Positions 1 through 5,172 of a stretch of 5,172 nucleotides of DNA are shown piece after piece. Position 1 is the stretch's first letter; the number at the start of each line of letters is the position of its first letter. Origin of the DNA: an uncultured Ardenticatenia bacterium (GTDB lineage: Bacteria > Chloroflexota > Anaerolineae > Promineifilales > Promineifilaceae); NCBI GenBank assembly GCA_937858165.1, contig CALLZA010000591.1, positions 1 to 5,172 on the forward strand, in the 5' to 3' direction. The position numbers and the translations under genes were made by a program. The notes under the pieces were generated by a model, which saw only the letters and a list, made by a program, of their open reading frames with translations, had not been told where the DNA came from and made no database searches.

Positions 1-75
1 GTGCGGGGCCCCCCCGCGTGCGGCCTAGGCCCGGGTGGACCCCCGACCGCCGTGCGGCCCGGGGCGGGGGGGATG
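1..75. other. Low-complexity, probably unreliable left contig edge
   Basis: This stretch is almost all G and C. It has a C7 run at 9-15 and a G7 run at 66-72, and these form a 9-base inverted repeat (9-17 against 64-72). The 9-mer CGTGCGGCC occurs directly repeated at 17-25 and 51-59. The encoded residues match no family I recognise, whereas the sequence after about base 110 reads like normal protein. Contig ends with homopolymer runs of this kind are prone to indels, so the frame before about base 75 should not be trusted. Confidence 0.5.
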
Positions 76-2079
76 GCCCTGGCCAGCGGCGGGCGGCTGG
101 CCGGGGCGGGGGCGCTGCGTGAAGCGCTGGCCGGGCGAGCGATCACCCCGCTGCCCCGGATGGCGCGGACGGTGGCCCTGCCGGCGACGGGTGGGCGGCG
201 GGGAGCGCCAACGTGGCTGTTGGCAGTCATTGGGCTGGCGGCGGTGGCCATTATTGCCGTGGGGGTCATCTTGCTCCTGCGTGGCCGTAATGGTCCGACG
301 GAGAACGAACCACCGGTGACCATCACAGTTGAAACCGTGGCGGTTGTGAAGAGTGGAGTTGTCGGTGTAACGGCCGAACCGTCGGCCACGGCCTCGCCCA
401 CCGTCGCGCCGACGCGAACGCCCACGCCAACCGCGACGGCGACAGAGCAACCGACGGCGACGGCCACCCCAGCCAATTGGCGCATCGCCGTCCTGCCAGG
501 CGGGGTTGAGAGCGCTCAAGTGCTTGTGCCGGCCGGTGCGTTCATGATGGGCGCCGAGGATGAAGACGCTGACGAAGATGAGGACCCCATCCACGAAGTG
601 CGCCTCGACGCTTTCTGGCTGGATGTCACCGAAGTGACCAACGTCCAGTACGCCGCCTTTGTGGCCGATACGGGCTTTGTCACCGCGGATGAACTGGACG
701 GCGAGGGGTATAGCGTCCTGACCGACACATTTGAGAATGTCCGCGGCGCCAACTGGCGGCATCCACGCGGCCCCGAAAGTGACATCATCGGCCAGGATGA
801 CCTTCCCGTGACGCTGGTCTCCTACGACGATGCCCGCGCCTACTGCACGTGGGCCGGCGGTCGCCTGCCGACGGAGGCGGAGTGGGAGTACGCCGCCCGC
901 GGGCCGAGTGCGCCACTCTACCCCTGGGGCGACGTGTTCTCCGATCAGCGAGTCAACGCCTGCGACCGCAACTGCCCCATGAGTTGGGCCGACGATAGCT
1001 TCAACGATGGCTATACCTTTGCCGCGGCCGTGGGGACGTTCGGCGGCGGCGTAAGTTGGGCCGGCGCGGAGGACATGGCCGGCAACGTGTGGGAGTGGAC
1101 GGCCGACTGGTACGATCCGAACTACTACGCCCGTTCGCCGGTTGACAATCCAGCCGGGCCGAGCGGCAGCGTTGACGAAGACGGCAAGAGTGTGCGCGGC
1201 GGGGCGTGGAGCAGTACCGATCAGGGAGTGCGGTCAACCACGCGCGTGTCAGTCGGGGCGTGGCGGGGGCACTTCGATGTGGGGATTCGTTGCGCCTATG
1301 ATGTGGCTCTTTCCCAATCAGGCGCAGGCCAATCAACCCTCGTCAGCAACACCGATCCGCCACCCGGGACCGACATCCGCTTCGTCGCAGTGCCGACCGG
1401 GCCGTTCGTGCGCGGCTCGACGGCCGATGACCCGCGCGCCTTCGACGACGAATCGCCGCAGCACACGATTGAGATGGACGCCTTCCGTATTGCGCGGACG
1501 GAGACGACGAATCGTGACTTCGCCGGCTGCGTGGCCGCTGGAGCGTGTCGAGCGCTACAGAGCGACGGTAGTGCTACACGCCAGCGCTACTATAGCGCAG
1601 AGGAGTATGCCGAGTTCCCCGTCGTCAATGTGTCGTGGGAGGACGCGGTCGACTTCTGCGAATGGGTGGGCGGTCGTCTGCCGACAGAGGCCGAGTGGGA
1701 GAAGGCCGCGCGCGGCGCGAACGGGTCCCTCTATCCGTGGGGGGATGAAGCGCCCTCATGTGCTCTCGCCAACTTCAACAATTGTGTCGGCGACACCACC
1801 GCAGTTGGAGCGTATCCATCCGGGGCCAGCCCCTACGGCGCTTTGGACATGGCCGGCAACGTCTGGGAATGGGTGGCCGATTGGTACGGAAGCGACTACT
1901 ATGCTGTCGTCCCTAACGCGAACCCGCCTGGCCCGTCAAGTGGCGAAGGGCGCGTCTTCCGCGGTGGGGCTTGGGATGATGAGGCGGGGTTGCTGCGCGC
2001 GGCTTATCGCGACGCCTATCTCGACCGTTCGTTTAACCTAGCTCTGGTTGGCTTCCGCTGCGCCTGGGACGCGGATTGA
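1..2079 (+). CDS. Membrane-anchored tandem FGE/SUMF1-like domain protein, 5'-partial
   Basis: The frame is open from the window edge, so residue numbers here count from base 1. Residues 1-71 are a basic, probably cytoplasmic segment, and 72-93 form one hydrophobic transmembrane helix (WLLAVIGLAAVAIIAVGVIL) flanked by RR and RGR. Residues 122-158 are a Thr/Pro/Ala-rich linker. Two FGE-sulfatase domains (SUMF1 type, C-type-lectin-like fold) follow at about 174-435 and 460-690. Both show the family signatures: a xxG strand near the start, GGRLPTEAEWE (286-296, 557-567), LYPWGD, DMAGNVWEW (358-366, 616-624), RGGAW, and GIRCA or GFRCA at the end. GNVWEW is a calcium-binding segment in characterised FGEs. 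The active-site cysteine pair of true FGE (C-x4-C shortly after RGGSW) is absent in both copies, which read RSTTRVSVGAW and RAAYRDAYL, so a binding or structural role is likelier than formylglycine formation. Methionines at 73 and 160 are possible internal starts. The 71 residues before the helix may instead be the tail of a kinase domain. The family call is firm; the start is unknown. Confidence 0.9.
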   Translation: MRGPPACGLGPGGPPTAVRPGAGGMALASGGRLAGAGALREALAGRAITPLPRMARTVALPATGGRRGAPTWLLAVIGLAAVAIIAVGVILLLRGRNGPTENEPPVTITVETVAVVKSGVVGVTAEPSATASPTVAPTRTPTPTATATEQPTATATPANWRIAVLPGGVESAQVLVPAGAFMMGAEDEDADEDEDPIHEVRLDAFWLDVTEVTNVQYAAFVADTGFVTADELDGEGYSVLTDTFENVRGANWRHPRGPESDIIGQDDLPVTLVSYDDARAYCTWAGGRLPTEAEWEYAARGPSAPLYPWGDVFSDQRVNACDRNCPMSWADDSFNDGYTFAAAVGTFGGGVSWAGAEDMAGNVWEWTADWYDPNYYARSPVDNPAGPSGSVDEDGKSVRGGAWSSTDQGVRSTTRVSVGAWRGHFDVGIRCAYDVALSQSGAGQSTLVSNTDPPPGTDIRFVAVPTGPFVRGSTADDPRAFDDESPQHTIEMDAFRIARTETTNRDFAGCVAAGACRALQSDGSATRQRYYSAEEYAEFPVVNVSWEDAVDFCEWVGGRLPTEAEWEKAARGANGSLYPWGDEAPSCALANFNNCVGDTTAVGAYPSGASPYGALDMAGNVWEWVADWYGSDYYAVVPNANPPGPSSGEGRVFRGGAWDDEAGLLRAAYRDAYLDRSFNLALVGFRCAWDAD
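520..1305 (+). repeat. FGE-like domain copy 1 (within the 1-2079 gene)
   Basis: First of two tandem protein-level copies, residues about 174-435. It opens with VPAGAFMMG and then has a very acidic loop (EDEDADEDEDP, 186-196) before the conserved H-E-V. This copy carries cysteines at 282, 321, 325 and 431. The 321/325 pair (NACDRNC) lies in the middle of the domain rather than at the FGE active-site position. It has a longer middle region than copy 2, including an extra segment around 225-262. Confidence 0.85.
1378..2070 (+). repeat. FGE-like domain copy 2 (within the 1-2079 gene)
   Basis: Second tandem copy, residues about 460-690, opening with VPTGPFVRG. It shares long near-identical blocks with copy 1 (GGRLPTEAEWE-AARG, LYPWGD, DMAGNVWEW-ADWY, then NPxGPS). 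It differs in its cysteines: a C-x5-C at 510/516 and a pair at 587/595 are not in copy 1 and could form disulphides outside the cell. The final GFRCAWD ends just before the stop codon at 2077-2079, so no further domain follows. Confidence 0.85.
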
Positions 2080-2083
2080 GGAT
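2078..2083 (+). promoter_or_regulatory. Weak candidate ribosome-binding site for the vWA gene
   Basis: GAGGAT overlaps the stop codon of the upstream gene and lies 18 bases before the ATG at 2102. That is longer than the usual 5-9 base spacing, so the match may be incidental and translation may be coupled to the upstream gene. No better Shine-Dalgarno-like sequence lies between the two genes. Confidence 0.3.
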
Positions 2084-2101
2084 GATACATCACCCGTCGA
2101 C

Positions 2102-3469
2102 ATGACAGCCCTTGACCTGCACACACACCTCAACCGCCCCACCTACCCCGCGACAGGCCAGCCGCAACTGGTCTACGCCCTGCTGGAAGCGCGGTTGCCC
2201 CGGCGCGGCCCGTCGGCCCCGGTCAACCTGGGGCTGGTCATCGACGTCAGCGCCTCGATGCGCATCCCGCTGTTGTCGCCGGCACAGTTCGAAGAACTGG
2301 CCGGGCAGGGGTTGGTGCACGAGGTCATCGCCGATGGCATTCCGGTCTGGCAGTTCGAGAACGTCACTACGGCGTCGCTGAAGCGCTACCCACGGCCGAT
2401 CGACTTCGTGGCCGAGGCGCTCAAGGTCGTGCTGGAGCAGGCGCGACCGACCGACCGCCTCTCCCTAGTCGCTTTCGCCGCGCGGGCCGAAACGGTACTG
2501 CCGCTGACCCCCGGCAAGGAGAAGCGGCGGCTGAAGCCGGTCATTCAGTCCGTCGGCGCGCTCGCTCTGGGTGACGACACGATGATGGGCGCGGGCATGG
2601 CTCTCAGCTTCCAGGAGCTGCAGCGCGGAGCCGCGCCAGAGTACGCCACGCGCATGATTCTGCTAACCGACGGCTTTACCCGCGACCACGCCAGTTGTCT
2701 GGCCTGGACGGCGCAGGCGGCCGCCGCCGGCTACACCATCAGCACCCTCGGCCTGGGCACGGAGTTCAACGAAGAGCTGCTCATTCCCATGGCCGAGCAG
2801 ACCGGCGGCCGGGCGCATTTCGTGGCCGACCCCGGCCAGTTGCCCGACATCTTCCGCGCCGAGCTGGCCGCGGCCCAGGCCGTCGGCTTTCGGCGCGCCG
2901 AGTTGAAGCTGCAGCTGACGCCCGGCGTGGAGCTGCGGCGCGTGACGCGTGTCAAGCCGGCGTTGGCCCGCGTCAATCCGGGGCCGAACACCGGCGGCAG
3001 CTACGCCCTCCCCCTGGGCGACATGGAGTGGGACGCGCCGCCGGCCTTCCTGCTGGAGTTGATCGTCCCGGCGCGGGCGGCGGGCGAGTACCGGCTGGCC
3101 CAGGCGGTGCTGAGCAGCGACCCGGTCGGCGCGGGACGCGTGACGGCGCGGGCCGACTTGGTGGGCCAGTTCATCGGTGGCGCGGCGGCCGATGTGGGTG
3201 CCGACCAGCGGGTGATGGGCTACGTCGAGCGCGTCGTGGCCTTCAATCTGCAGACGCGCGCCCTGGAAGAGGCCGCCGCGGGCGATGTCGAGACAGCGAC
3301 GCGCCGCCTGCACGCCGCCGCGACCCGCTTGCTGGACATGGGCGAGACGAAGCTGGCCCGTACCTTGCAGCAACAGGCCCAGGCGCTTGAAGGGCGCGCC
3401 AAACTCGACGCCACGGCCACCAAAGAGCTACAATACGCCACGCGCCAGTTGACGCGAAAGTTGCCGTAG
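2102..3469 (+). CDS. Cytoplasmic von Willebrand factor type A (vWA) domain protein
   Basis: A complete 455-residue protein with no signal peptide or membrane helix. An N-terminal strand region (about 5-40) leads to a vWA domain (about 41-257) with an intact metal-ion-dependent adhesion site: D48-x-S50-x-S52 in LVIDVSASM, T160 in GDDTMMGAGM, and D190 in MILLTDG. The stretch TISTLGLGTEFNEELL (212-227) is the usual late strand and helix of stand-alone bacterial vWA proteins. Residues about 54-98 are an insertion between the first MIDAS loop and the following helix. Residues 258-345 look like a beta-sandwich, and 370-455 are helical and rich in Ala, Gln, Arg and Leu, perhaps TPR-like or coiled coil. 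An in-frame TTG at 2048 would add 18 residues but lies inside the upstream gene with no ribosome-binding site, so ATG 2102 is preferred. The gap to the upstream gene is 22 bases. Such proteins usually bind partners through the metal site; the partner here is unknown, but the adjacent kinase is the obvious candidate. Confidence 0.92.
   Translation: MTALDLHTHLNRPTYPATGQPQLVYALLEARLPRRGPSAPVNLGLVIDVSASMRIPLLSPAQFEELAGQGLVHEVIADGIPVWQFENVTTASLKRYPRPIDFVAEALKVVLEQARPTDRLSLVAFAARAETVLPLTPGKEKRRLKPVIQSVGALALGDDTMMGAGMALSFQELQRGAAPEYATRMILLTDGFTRDHASCLAWTAQAAAAGYTISTLGLGTEFNEELLIPMAEQTGGRAHFVADPGQLPDIFRAELAAAQAVGFRRAELKLQLTPGVELRRVTRVKPALARVNPGPNTGGSYALPLGDMEWDAPPAFLLELIVPARAAGEYRLAQAVLSSDPVGAGRVTARADLVGQFIGGAAADVGADQRVMGYVERVVAFNLQTRALEEAAAGDVETATRRLHAAATRLLDMGETKLARTLQQQAQALEGRAKLDATATKELQYATRQLTRKLP
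2261..2395 (+). other. Insertion inside the vWA domain after the first MIDAS motif
   Basis: Residues about 54-98 of the vWA protein separate DVSASM from the helix FVAEALKVVLEQ. In most vWA domains only a few residues lie between these elements. The insertion begins RIPLLSPAQFEELAGQG, continues with a hydrophobic strand-like part (IADGIPVWQF), and ends KRYPRPID. It would project next to the metal site, where it could shape or cover the partner-binding face. The boundaries are estimated by eye. Confidence 0.55.
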
Positions 3470-3476
3470 TCACGAC

Positions 3477-3483
3477 AGGAGGT
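3477..3483 (+). promoter_or_regulatory. Strong Shine-Dalgarno with unusually short spacing
   Basis: AGGAGGT is a near-perfect anti-Shine-Dalgarno match, but only two bases lie between AGGAGG and the ATG at 3485, much closer than the typical 5-9. The start cannot move: the vWA stop codon (3467-3469) is in the same frame with no start codon after it, and the first zinc-ribbon cysteine is residue 3. Initiation may therefore depend partly on ribosomes terminating on the vWA gene 15 bases upstream. Confidence 0.7.
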
Positions 3484-3484
3484 C

Positions 3485-5031
3485 ATGAACTGCCCCAACT
3501 GCTCCGCCGACAACCGACCGGGAGCGACCTTTTGCGGTTCCTGCGGTCGGCCGCTGCGGGTCGACCTGCTGCCGGTTTGCGATGCCTGCAACGCGGCGCT
3601 GCGGGTCGGGGCGCGCTTCTGCCACCGCTGCGGGCGCACGTTGAGCGCGGTCGTGGGGGCCGAACTGGCGCTGCCGGTCGAGGTGTCGTCACCCATCGCC
3701 GGGCCACAGCCGGCTGAGCCACAATCGTCAGCCATTTCGCTGCCGGGCGTCGCGGCCGAGGCTGTCTGCCCCAACTGCGGCCAGGCCAACCGCACTGCCG
3801 CCCGCTTTTGCCACGCCTGCCGCGCGCCGCTGCTGGTCGCGTGTGGGCAGTGCGGGCAGGAGAATCGTGTCGCGGCCCGCTTCTGCCGGGAGTGCGGCGC
3901 GCTGCTGGCGGGGGGCGGGTCACCACTGGCCGCCGAGCCTGCCGACCGCGTGCCCACCGACGGCGCGCTGCCCATCACCACCAAACCGCCGCCGCCGCGC
4001 TCCGCGCCAATCGTCTGCGAGTTCTGCGGCGGGGCCATCCACGGCGGAGCGCGCTTCTGCCCCCACTGTGGCCACTCGCCCACGTCGCGCCAGTTGGCCG
4101 TGGCCGACAAGTTCATTACCGGCCAGATGCCCCAGGGTTACCTGGTGCGCGGCAGCGATGGGACCGAGTACATGGTGCTGCGTCTCATCGCCGAGGGGGG
4201 GATGGGCGCGGTGTACGAGATCGGCCGCCTGAGCGACGGCACGCACTGGGCCATGAAGGAGATGAGCGAGACGGCCCTGGCCCGCGGCGACCGCGTTAAG
4301 ACGGTGGCTCAGTTCCGCGAAGAGGCGGATCTGTTGCGCGCCCTGCGCCACGAGAACCTGCCCCGCGTCGTTGACGTCTTCGAGGCCAGCCACCGCCACT
4401 TCCTGGTTATGGAACTGATCGAGGGTCAAACGCTCAATCAGTTGCTCGACGCCCACGGCGGGCCGCTGCCGGAGCGGGACGTGGTTGATTGGGGGGCGCA
4501 ACTGTGCCGCGTGTTGGCCTTCCTTCACAGCCGCAACCCGCCCATCATCTACCGCGACCTGAAGCCCGACAACATCATGGTCGAAACGGCTGGCGGCCGG
4601 GTCAAGCTGATCGACTTCGGCATCGCCCGCCGCTTCAAGGGCGGCAAACGCAGCGACACATTCATGCTGGGGACGCGCGGCTACGCGGCGCCGGAGCAGT
4701 TCGGCAAGGCCGAGAGTGACGCTCGCACCGACCTCTACGCATTGGGGGCGACGCTCCACCACTTGCTGACGCACGAGAACCCGACCAGCCGCAAGATGTT
4801 CGACTTCCCGGCGCTGGCGAGCTATGCGCACCTGAAGCTCTCGCGCCGGACGTGCGAGGCGATCGACGCCGCCCTGCAACCCATCCCCGACGTCCGCCCG
4901 CCCGACGCCGCCTCGCTCTATAAGGCGCTGACCGGCCGCACCATGCCGCCGCCGCCGCCGGCCACCGCGCCGGCGTCCGTCGTCGCGCCGCCCGCCGCGG
5001 CCGACGGGCAACGCCGCGCTCCAGCCCTGAC
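3485..5031 (+). CDS. Penta-zinc-ribbon Ser/Thr protein kinase, 3'-partial
   Basis: About 515 genuine residues; the gene is cut by the contig end. Residues 1-200 hold five C-x2-C...C-x2-C zinc ribbons. Their cysteines are 3/6/17/20, 32/35/46/49, 95/98/109/112, 120/123/134/137 and 178/181/192/195. A kinase domain of the bacterial PknB-like (Hanks-type) family follows at about 229-485. It has a glycine loop AEGGMGAVY (236-244, first Gly replaced by Ala), catalytic Lys258 (WAMKEM), helix-C Glu280 (FREEA), a catalytic loop YRDLKPDN (Asp358, Lys360, Asn363; Tyr in place of the usual His), DFG at 377-379, activation loop Thr392, APE at 402-404, subdomain IX Asp416 and the C-lobe Arg471. All catalytic residues are present, so an active ATP-dependent kinase is expected. 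After about residue 487 a Pro/Ala-rich linker begins (MPPPPPATAPA), which in this family often leads to a membrane helix and a sensor domain, here missing. The frame stays open through the adapter sequence from 5032 on, so residues after about 515 are false. The gene starts 15 bases after the vWA gene, probably in the same transcript. Confidence 0.93.
3491..4069 (+). repeat. Array of five zinc ribbons (protein-level repeat)
   Basis: Five modules of the form C-x2-C-x10-C-x2-C at 3491-3544, 3578-3631, 3767-3820, 3842-3895 and 4016-4069, all 18 residues from first to last cysteine. The second half of modules 2-5 repeats GARFC or AARFC before the last C-x2-C pair, and the DNA there keeps a recognisable repeated core. 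Modules 1-2 and 3-4 are closely spaced pairs like double zinc ribbons (DZANK type). Module 5 is separated by a Pro-rich linker and sits about 33 residues before the kinase domain. Confidence 0.9.
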
Positions 5032-5101
5032 CTGTCTCTTATACACATCTGACGCTGCCGACGAGCGATCTAGTGTAGATCTCGGTGGTCGCCGTATCAT
5101 T
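5032..5101. other. Nextera/Tn5 sequencing adapter (read-through contamination)
   Basis: Positions 5032-5050 are exactly CTGTCTCTTATACACATCT, the 19-base Tn5 mosaic end in read-through orientation. Positions 5051-5064 (GACGCTGCCGACGA) are the Nextera read-1 side linker. Positions 5065-5072 (GCGATCTA) are the reverse complement of i5 index TAGATCGC, which I recall as N501/S501. Positions 5073-5101 are the reverse complement of the 29-base Illumina P5 primer, from GTGTAGATCTC to GTATCATT. All parts are in order without gaps. This is library-construction sequence, not biology, and should be trimmed. Confidence 0.99.
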
Positions 5102-5172
5102 AAAAAAAAAACAACGAGATCAAAAGACACAAAGACACAACCACGAGAAGCAAACAAGCACGACAAGAAGCA
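5102..5172. other. Post-adapter poly-A and A/C-rich sequencer noise
   Basis: A run of ten A (5102-5111) directly follows the end of the P5 sequence. The remaining 61 bases are mostly A and C with some G and contain a single T, at 5120. This is the output expected when a read continues past the end of the library molecule. It bears no relation to the GC-rich genome before 5032 and encodes nothing. Confidence 0.95.

What the first reader, a model, noticed from the sequence alone, without database searches (positions are those of the whole stretch)
5032..5101. Complete Illumina Nextera i5-side adapter embedded at the contig end
The mosaic end, linker, 8-base index and full P5 complement occur in perfect order. 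The assembly extended through untrimmed read-through, so the last 141 bases are artefact and the record needs trimming at 5031. The junction also marks where the library fragment ended, not where the gene ended.
Basis: partly seen in the sequence, partly recalled or inferred. Interest (0 to 1): 0.7.

Follow-up and report, generated by a model that had tools for sequence, protein, structure and literature searches.

The report
Sequencing adapter left on contig end
This bacterial contig ends in a complete Illumina Nextera sequencing adapter followed by what is likely read-end noise, so the protein kinase gene that runs into it is cut short there, while relatives of the gene run on, and the contig should be trimmed at base 5031.

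Summary
Confirmed, and ordinary. Bases 5032-5101 are a perfect Nextera i5-side read-through: mosaic end, linker, index, P5 complement. Bases 5044-5101 are the exact reverse complement of a primer printed in PMC9605692. Ten A and 61 nearly T-free bases follow, likely end-of-read noise, found nowhere else in the readable assembly.

The fault runs through the assembly: 393 i5-side and 521 i7-side copies in 1043 contigs, 27 of 30 readable sampled contigs, one index pair (exact in 41 of 47 sampled ends, the rest within 2 bases), 0 of 58 related genomes. Seven aligned kinase relatives continue 160-162 residues past the residue where the window meets the adapter.

Adapter contamination of genome databases is published (PMC11536531).

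The parts
5032..5050 (+). Nextera/Tn5 mosaic end, reverse complement (CTGTCTCTTATACACATCT)
   Evidence: exact match; 0 mismatches to the engineered mosaic end, 3 to Tn5 outside end, 4 to inside end (these end sequences are recalled)
5051..5064 (+). i5-side linker, reverse complement
   Evidence: exact match
5065..5072 (+). i5 index GCGATCTA, reverse complement of TAGATCGC (name N501/S501 recalled)
   Evidence: primer AD1.1 in PMC9605692 carries TAGATCGC in this position
5073..5101 (+). P5 flow-cell oligo, reverse complement
   Evidence: exact match
5102..5172 (+). likely read-end noise after the end of the library molecule: ten A, then A/C/G-rich sequence with 1 T in all 71 bases
   Evidence: composition; matches only itself in the readable part of its own assembly; 47 tails in sister contigs show the same A-run followed by differing sequence
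3485..5031 (+). genomic part of a zinc-ribbon Ser/Thr protein kinase gene, cut off at the adapter join
   Evidence: Pfam DZR and Pkinase; seven aligned homologues continue 160-162 residues beyond
5033..5170 (+). 46 artefact codons (kinase ORF residues 517-562, CLLYTSDAADE...), not protein
   Evidence: 8-11 of 42-44 aligned residues match the seven relatives here, against 179-206 of 208 in residues 229-436
4918..5166 (-). spurious 82-residue reverse ORF containing the translated adapter FFLMIRRPPRSTLDRSSAASDVYKRQ
   Evidence: list; 120 of 120 listed database hits share DVYKRQ
1..75 (+). unreliable 5' end of the contig, likely end-of-read errors
   Evidence: 87% G+C; residues 2-24 match the closest relative P0241 at 8 of 23, residues 151-692 at 542 of 542

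Best explanation
The contig ends in a complete Illumina Nextera i5-side adapter plus what is likely read-end noise, which the assembler presumably kept because the reads were not trimmed. The likely steps are these. Tn5 tagmentation made a fragment that ended at base 5031 (inferred). A read longer than the fragment ran through mosaic end, linker, index and P5 complement (these bases are shown by the sequence) and then off the end of the molecule, where the base caller gave A and then noise (inferred). At low coverage this read was the only one reaching past the join, so the contig took its end from it (inferred). The kinase gene very probably continues in the real genome, as it does in the seven relatives aligned.
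For: Exact four-part match in order and to a printed primer. 393 i5-side and 521 i7-side copies in the same assembly (up to 2 mismatches), against 0 for the patterns read backwards. 191 copies of the full 70 bases with the same index. In an evenly spaced sample of 50 contigs, 30 were readable; 27 of the 30 and 47 of their 60 ends carry an adapter, 83-268 bases from the contig end. At those 47 ends the index is exact in 11 of 14 i5 and 30 of 33 i7 cases, the other 6 being within 2 mismatches. 0 of 58 relatives have the exact i5 pattern. The tail 5102-5172 matches nothing else in the readable assembly. The kinase alignment breaks at the join.
Against: None found against an artefact. Raw reads were not available, so coverage past 5031 and the noise origin of 5102-5172 are inferred. 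23 of 23 fetched contigs under 3000 bases read all N, so the assembly counts are lower bounds and a continuation on such a contig could not be seen. In contigs C44 and C528 the adapter lies inside the contig, and some phage and plasmid records carry adapter matches away from their ends, so read-through at a contig end does not explain every copy everywhere.
Confidence: 0.985

Rival explanations
1. The adapter end was glued on by the assembler from an unrelated read (as seems to have happened in contig C44) and is not the read-through of a fragment from this locus.
For: C44 holds a 128-base insert of 36% G+C between an i7 and an i5 adapter, joined through the noise tail to a 65% G+C body. Such joins therefore seem to occur in this assembly.
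Against: In the window the mosaic end follows kinase codons directly: residues 501-516 match P0003 at 16 of 16, and no foreign insert lies between. The strand is that expected of a fragment ending here.
Confidence: 0.01
2. A real Tn5-like or laboratory transposon is inserted in the kinase gene.
For: The mosaic end derives from Tn5 ends (recalled).
Against: The 19 bases are the engineered mosaic end, with 3 mismatches to the outside end and 4 to the inside end (end sequences recalled). Index and P5 follow at once. 914 i5- and i7-side copies sit in one assembly; the i5 pattern is in 0 of 58 relatives. No match in 20,395 E. coli records at megablast sensitivity.
Confidence: 0.002
3. The kinase gene truly ends near 5170 and the tail is a lineage-specific C-terminus.
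For: The reading frame stays open through the artefact to 5170.
Against: Seven of the seven relatives aligned (of 120 listed) continue with a conserved 160-162 residues and end in a hydrophobic stretch. The window's tail translates adapter bases.
Confidence: 0.001

Closest known systems
Sequencing-adapter contamination at contig ends of microbial genome databases (Moeller et al. 2024, PMC11536531; parts 1 and 2 of 3 of the text read)
   Same: Adapters at contig ends, reverse complements at contig starts, 0 to 805 copies per assembly, in isolates and MAGs; removal lets some contigs merge.
   Different: That survey searched the word AGATCGGAAGAG in MGnify genomes. This is a Nextera adapter, with long noise tails after it (adapter start 83-268 bases from the contig end) and two internal joins.
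Illumina Nextera/ATAC primers AD1.1 and AD2.2 as printed in PMC9605692 (one passage seen)
   Same: AD1.1 is reverse-complementary to 5044-5101. AD2.2 (whole 53 bases) is found in 25 of the 65 loci L001-L065, all from the window's assembly.
   Different: Nothing in the bases; the paper concerns another organism and only supplies the primer sequence.
Spurious proteins from translated CRISPR arrays (PMC7673337; search listing and start of abstract seen)
   Same: Non-coding DNA translated into database proteins.
   Different: Here the source is an adapter, not a genomic repeat.

Membership tests
Nextera i5-side adapter read-through | mosaic end, linker, 8-base index, P5 complement in this order and strand | tested here: met
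   exact, 5032-5101
Nextera i5-side adapter read-through | index belongs to a known set | tested here: met
   TAGATCGC stands as index in P5 primers printed in two papers (passages)
Nextera i5-side adapter read-through | lies at the contig end, followed only by a short non-genomic tail | tested here: met
   71 bases of A-run and T-poor sequence to the contig end, matching nothing else in the readable assembly; the window is contig C591 from base 1 to 5172. That the tail is read noise is inferred.
Nextera i5-side adapter read-through | other ends of the same assembly carry the same index and an i7 counterpart | tested here: met
   (11 of 14 i5 and 30 of 33 i7 indexes exact in the even sample)
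Nextera i5-side adapter read-through | absent from relatives | tested here: met
   0 of 58 relatives have the exact i5 pattern; homologous proteins continue without it
Nextera i5-side adapter read-through | coverage past the join comes only from short-insert reads | not testable with these tools
   no raw reads held
Tn5/IS50 insertion | natural outside or inside end | tested here: not met
   3 and 4 mismatches, against 0 to the engineered mosaic end (ends recalled)
Tn5/IS50 insertion | 9-base target duplication | not testable with these tools
   the contig stops on one side
Tn5/IS50 insertion | transposase gene between the ends | tested here: inconclusive
   only 71 bases follow the adapter, so the far side is not in the contig; the three long + strand ORFs are FGE-sulfatase, VWA and kinase
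Complete zinc-ribbon Ser/Thr kinase gene | C-terminal 160-162 residues with hydrophobic end | tested here: not met
   cut at residue 516

The most novel reading that the evidence does not exclude
Nextera read-through does more than dirty contig ends: its noise tails glue fragments of different organisms into one contig inside reference MAGs, and its translation (MIRRPPRSTL...SAASDVYKRQ, CLLYTSDAADE) forms a large false protein 'family' with thousands of database clusters.
Probability: 0.55. Interest if true: 0.3.

Novelty: not a real feature. Interest (0 to 1): 0.12.

Why it matters
Not biology, but useful hygiene. The readable part of the assembly holds 914 adapter copies. Gene calls that run into contig ends get false tails, and an adapter-only mask would leave the noise tail behind. 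Two contigs contain internal adapter joins, one of them next to DNA of very different G+C content. Anyone using this MAG for gene ends, small proteins, contig linkage or novelty searches should trim it first.

Tried and rejected
Two classes of contigs: in the sample all 20 contigs under 3000 bases lacked adapters, which looked like a second, clean assembly. A check showed that they read entirely as N, so they were left out of the count and the idea was dropped.

A first index count (35 of 37 i5 and 34 of 35 i7 occurrences exact) is biased: most i5 loci in it were fetched with a pattern that already held the index, the C44 sites are counted twice, and the window is among them. Among the eight i5 loci found without the index (L001-L008), 6 are exact and 2 have one mismatch. 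The report uses the recount on the even sample instead.

Duplicate contigs: neighbouring contig numbers have similar lengths (C75/C76, C111/C112). I took this for name ordering, not duplication, and did not test it by alignment. The kinase end of the window has no second near-identical copy among the readable contigs (itself at 100%; other matches 68-77%, or 85% over 40 bases).

The noise tail as hidden P7 or other oligo: ungapped comparison gave at best 9 of 13 and 10 of 15 matching bases, not convincing.

The missing part of the kinase gene in the same assembly or in the genus: no near match (best-scoring genus match 77% over about 255 bases), so the continuation rests on protein relatives.

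5' end by DNA comparison in the genus: no relative aligns across it; only short pieces at 75-81%. Protein comparison used instead.

Print record of the translated adapter: MIRRPPRSTL, SAASDVYKRQ and CLLYTSDAADE occur in 0 papers of the held library. Two wider searches for adapter-derived spurious proteins showed, in the rows listed (12 of 25 and 10 of 23 papers), no title or abstract start about it; I did not read those papers. Listings gave nothing closer than PMC11536531 (found).

Full report
What was checked. The window is contig C591, bases 1-5172, of an assembly of 4,449,091 bases in 1043 contigs, 79.4% complete. All four adapter parts are present without a mismatch at 5032-5101. A published primer list (PMC9605692, one passage seen) prints AD1.1, whose reverse complement is window 5044-5101 exactly. 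The library index is TAGATCGC on the i5 side. The names N501 and, for the i7 partner CGTACTAG, N702 are recalled; both index sequences occur in the printed primers of PMC8185305 and PMC9605692 (passages seen).

Scale in the assembly. The i5-side 33-mer occurs 393 times with up to 2 mismatches and 329 times exactly. The i7-side 34-mer occurs 521 times with up to 2 mismatches. The full 70 bases with the same index occur 191 times. The same patterns read backwards occur 0 times in these four searches. Of 50 evenly spaced contigs, 20 were under 3000 bases and read as N; all 23 short contigs fetched did. Of the other 30, 27 carry an adapter, 20 at both ends; 47 of 60 ends in all. The adapter begins 83 to 268 bases from the contig end, median 183. 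At these 47 ends the index is exact in 11 of 14 i5 and 30 of 33 i7 cases; the other six differ by one or two bases, as read-end errors would. If each tail is one read, reads were longer than 268 bases, probably 2x300 (inferred), and the last read of this contig would hold about 160 genomic bases, roughly 4872-5031 (inferred). None of 58 related genomes carries the exact i5 pattern.

The tail. After P5 the window has ten A and then 61 bases; the 71-base tail has 43 A, 16 C, 11 G and 1 T. It matches only itself in the readable assembly. In 47 sister tails A fills 43-46 of 47 at positions 1, 3, 5, 7 and 9, falls to 26 of 47 at position 11, and the sequences then differ. This is what reading past the end of a molecule would give (inferred). 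An adapter screen would probably flag 5032-5101 and leave 5102-5172, so the cut has to be made at 5031.

The gene. The ORF from 3485 is a double-zinc-ribbon Ser/Thr protein kinase, running open through the adapter to 5170. P0001 (97% identical) and six other relatives aligned (P0001-P0007 of 120 listed) match up to Thr516, whose third base is already adapter, and continue with 160-162 further residues ending in a hydrophobic stretch. Window residues 517-562 match these relatives at 8-11 of 42-44 aligned positions; residues 229-436 match at 179-206 of 208. The gene very probably does not end here.

Joins inside contigs. In loci L001-L065, fetched with 1500 bases on each side where available, the adapter lies within 266 bases of the end except in C44. 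In the lists (about 100 places each), C528 also stands out by its orientation; for most listed + places the contig length was not looked up. C44 begins with an i7 end, a 128-base insert of 36% G+C, an i5 end with noise tail, and then a body of 65% G+C. C528 has a reversed i5 adapter at 4261-4330 followed by 90 bases at its 3' end. These look like chimeras made through the noise tail (inferred; the joining overlap was not found).

Elsewhere. The 100 matches in these 97 stretches all lie within 50 bases of the end of the stretch held, and carry ten different index words (7 in genomes, 5 in viral contigs, two shared). E. coli genomes: no match in 20,395 records. Plasmids: 8 of 72,556 records. Phages: 41 of 50,697. 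Some of the plasmid and phage records, such as CP058799.1 and MK373775.1, have the match well inside the record. In the protein database the reverse ORF 4918-5166 gave 3760 hits at E up to 0.001 among 8000 scored candidates; of the 120 listed, 120 contain DVYKRQ. The other 3640 were not inspected.

Against known work. Moeller et al. 2024 (PMC11536531; parts 1 and 2 of 3 read) screened 15,657 MGnify reference genomes for the word AGATCGGAAGAG and found 1110 with significant adapter enrichment at p < 0.01, about 157 expected by chance, concentrated at contig ends. The present case is the same fault with another adapter. It is not new biology.

Noticed in passing
window 1-75: The contig's first 75 bases are 87% G+C and the translated residues 2-24 match the closest relative P0241 at only 8 of 23, while residues 151-692 match at 542 of 542; likely read-end errors at the other contig end, without an adapter.
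   Followed up: partly
window 286-450: FGE-sulfatase ORF residues 96-150 match P0241 at 26 of 55 but P0242 at 37 of 55, although residues 151-692 are identical to P0241: a strain mosaic or a mixed-strain consensus.
   Followed up: partly
window 4793-5031: Kinase residues 437-516 are closer to P0003 (78 of 80) than to P0001 (65 of 80), while residues 1-228 are closer to P0001 (227 of 228, against 172 of 216): a similar mosaic pattern.
   Followed up: partly
window 1-5031: Gene row FGE-sulfatase (close relatives carry an N-terminal kinase domain, here off the contig), VWA protein, zinc-ribbon Ser/Thr kinase; some relatives are named Promineifilum sp..
   Followed up: no
L074 (G000:C44) 1-480: Internal i7 adapter, AT-rich 128-base insert and i5 adapter joined through the noise tail to a GC-rich contig.
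   Followed up: partly
L075 (G000:C528) 4140-4420: Reversed i5 adapter with a T-rich (reversed) noise tail joined to the contig body, followed by a 90-base insert.
   Followed up: partly
L251 (MK373775.1 149749-149818), locus 1501-1570: Phage vB_EcoM_WFK 'complete genome' carries a 70-base match (95.7%) to the adapter where a tail-fibre CDS ends and a short hypothetical CDS overlaps it.
   Followed up: partly
plasmid records CP058799.1, NZ_CP072739.1 and others: Eight plasmid records match part or all of the adapter, among them three 2574-base Enterococcus faecium records at the same position.
   Followed up: no
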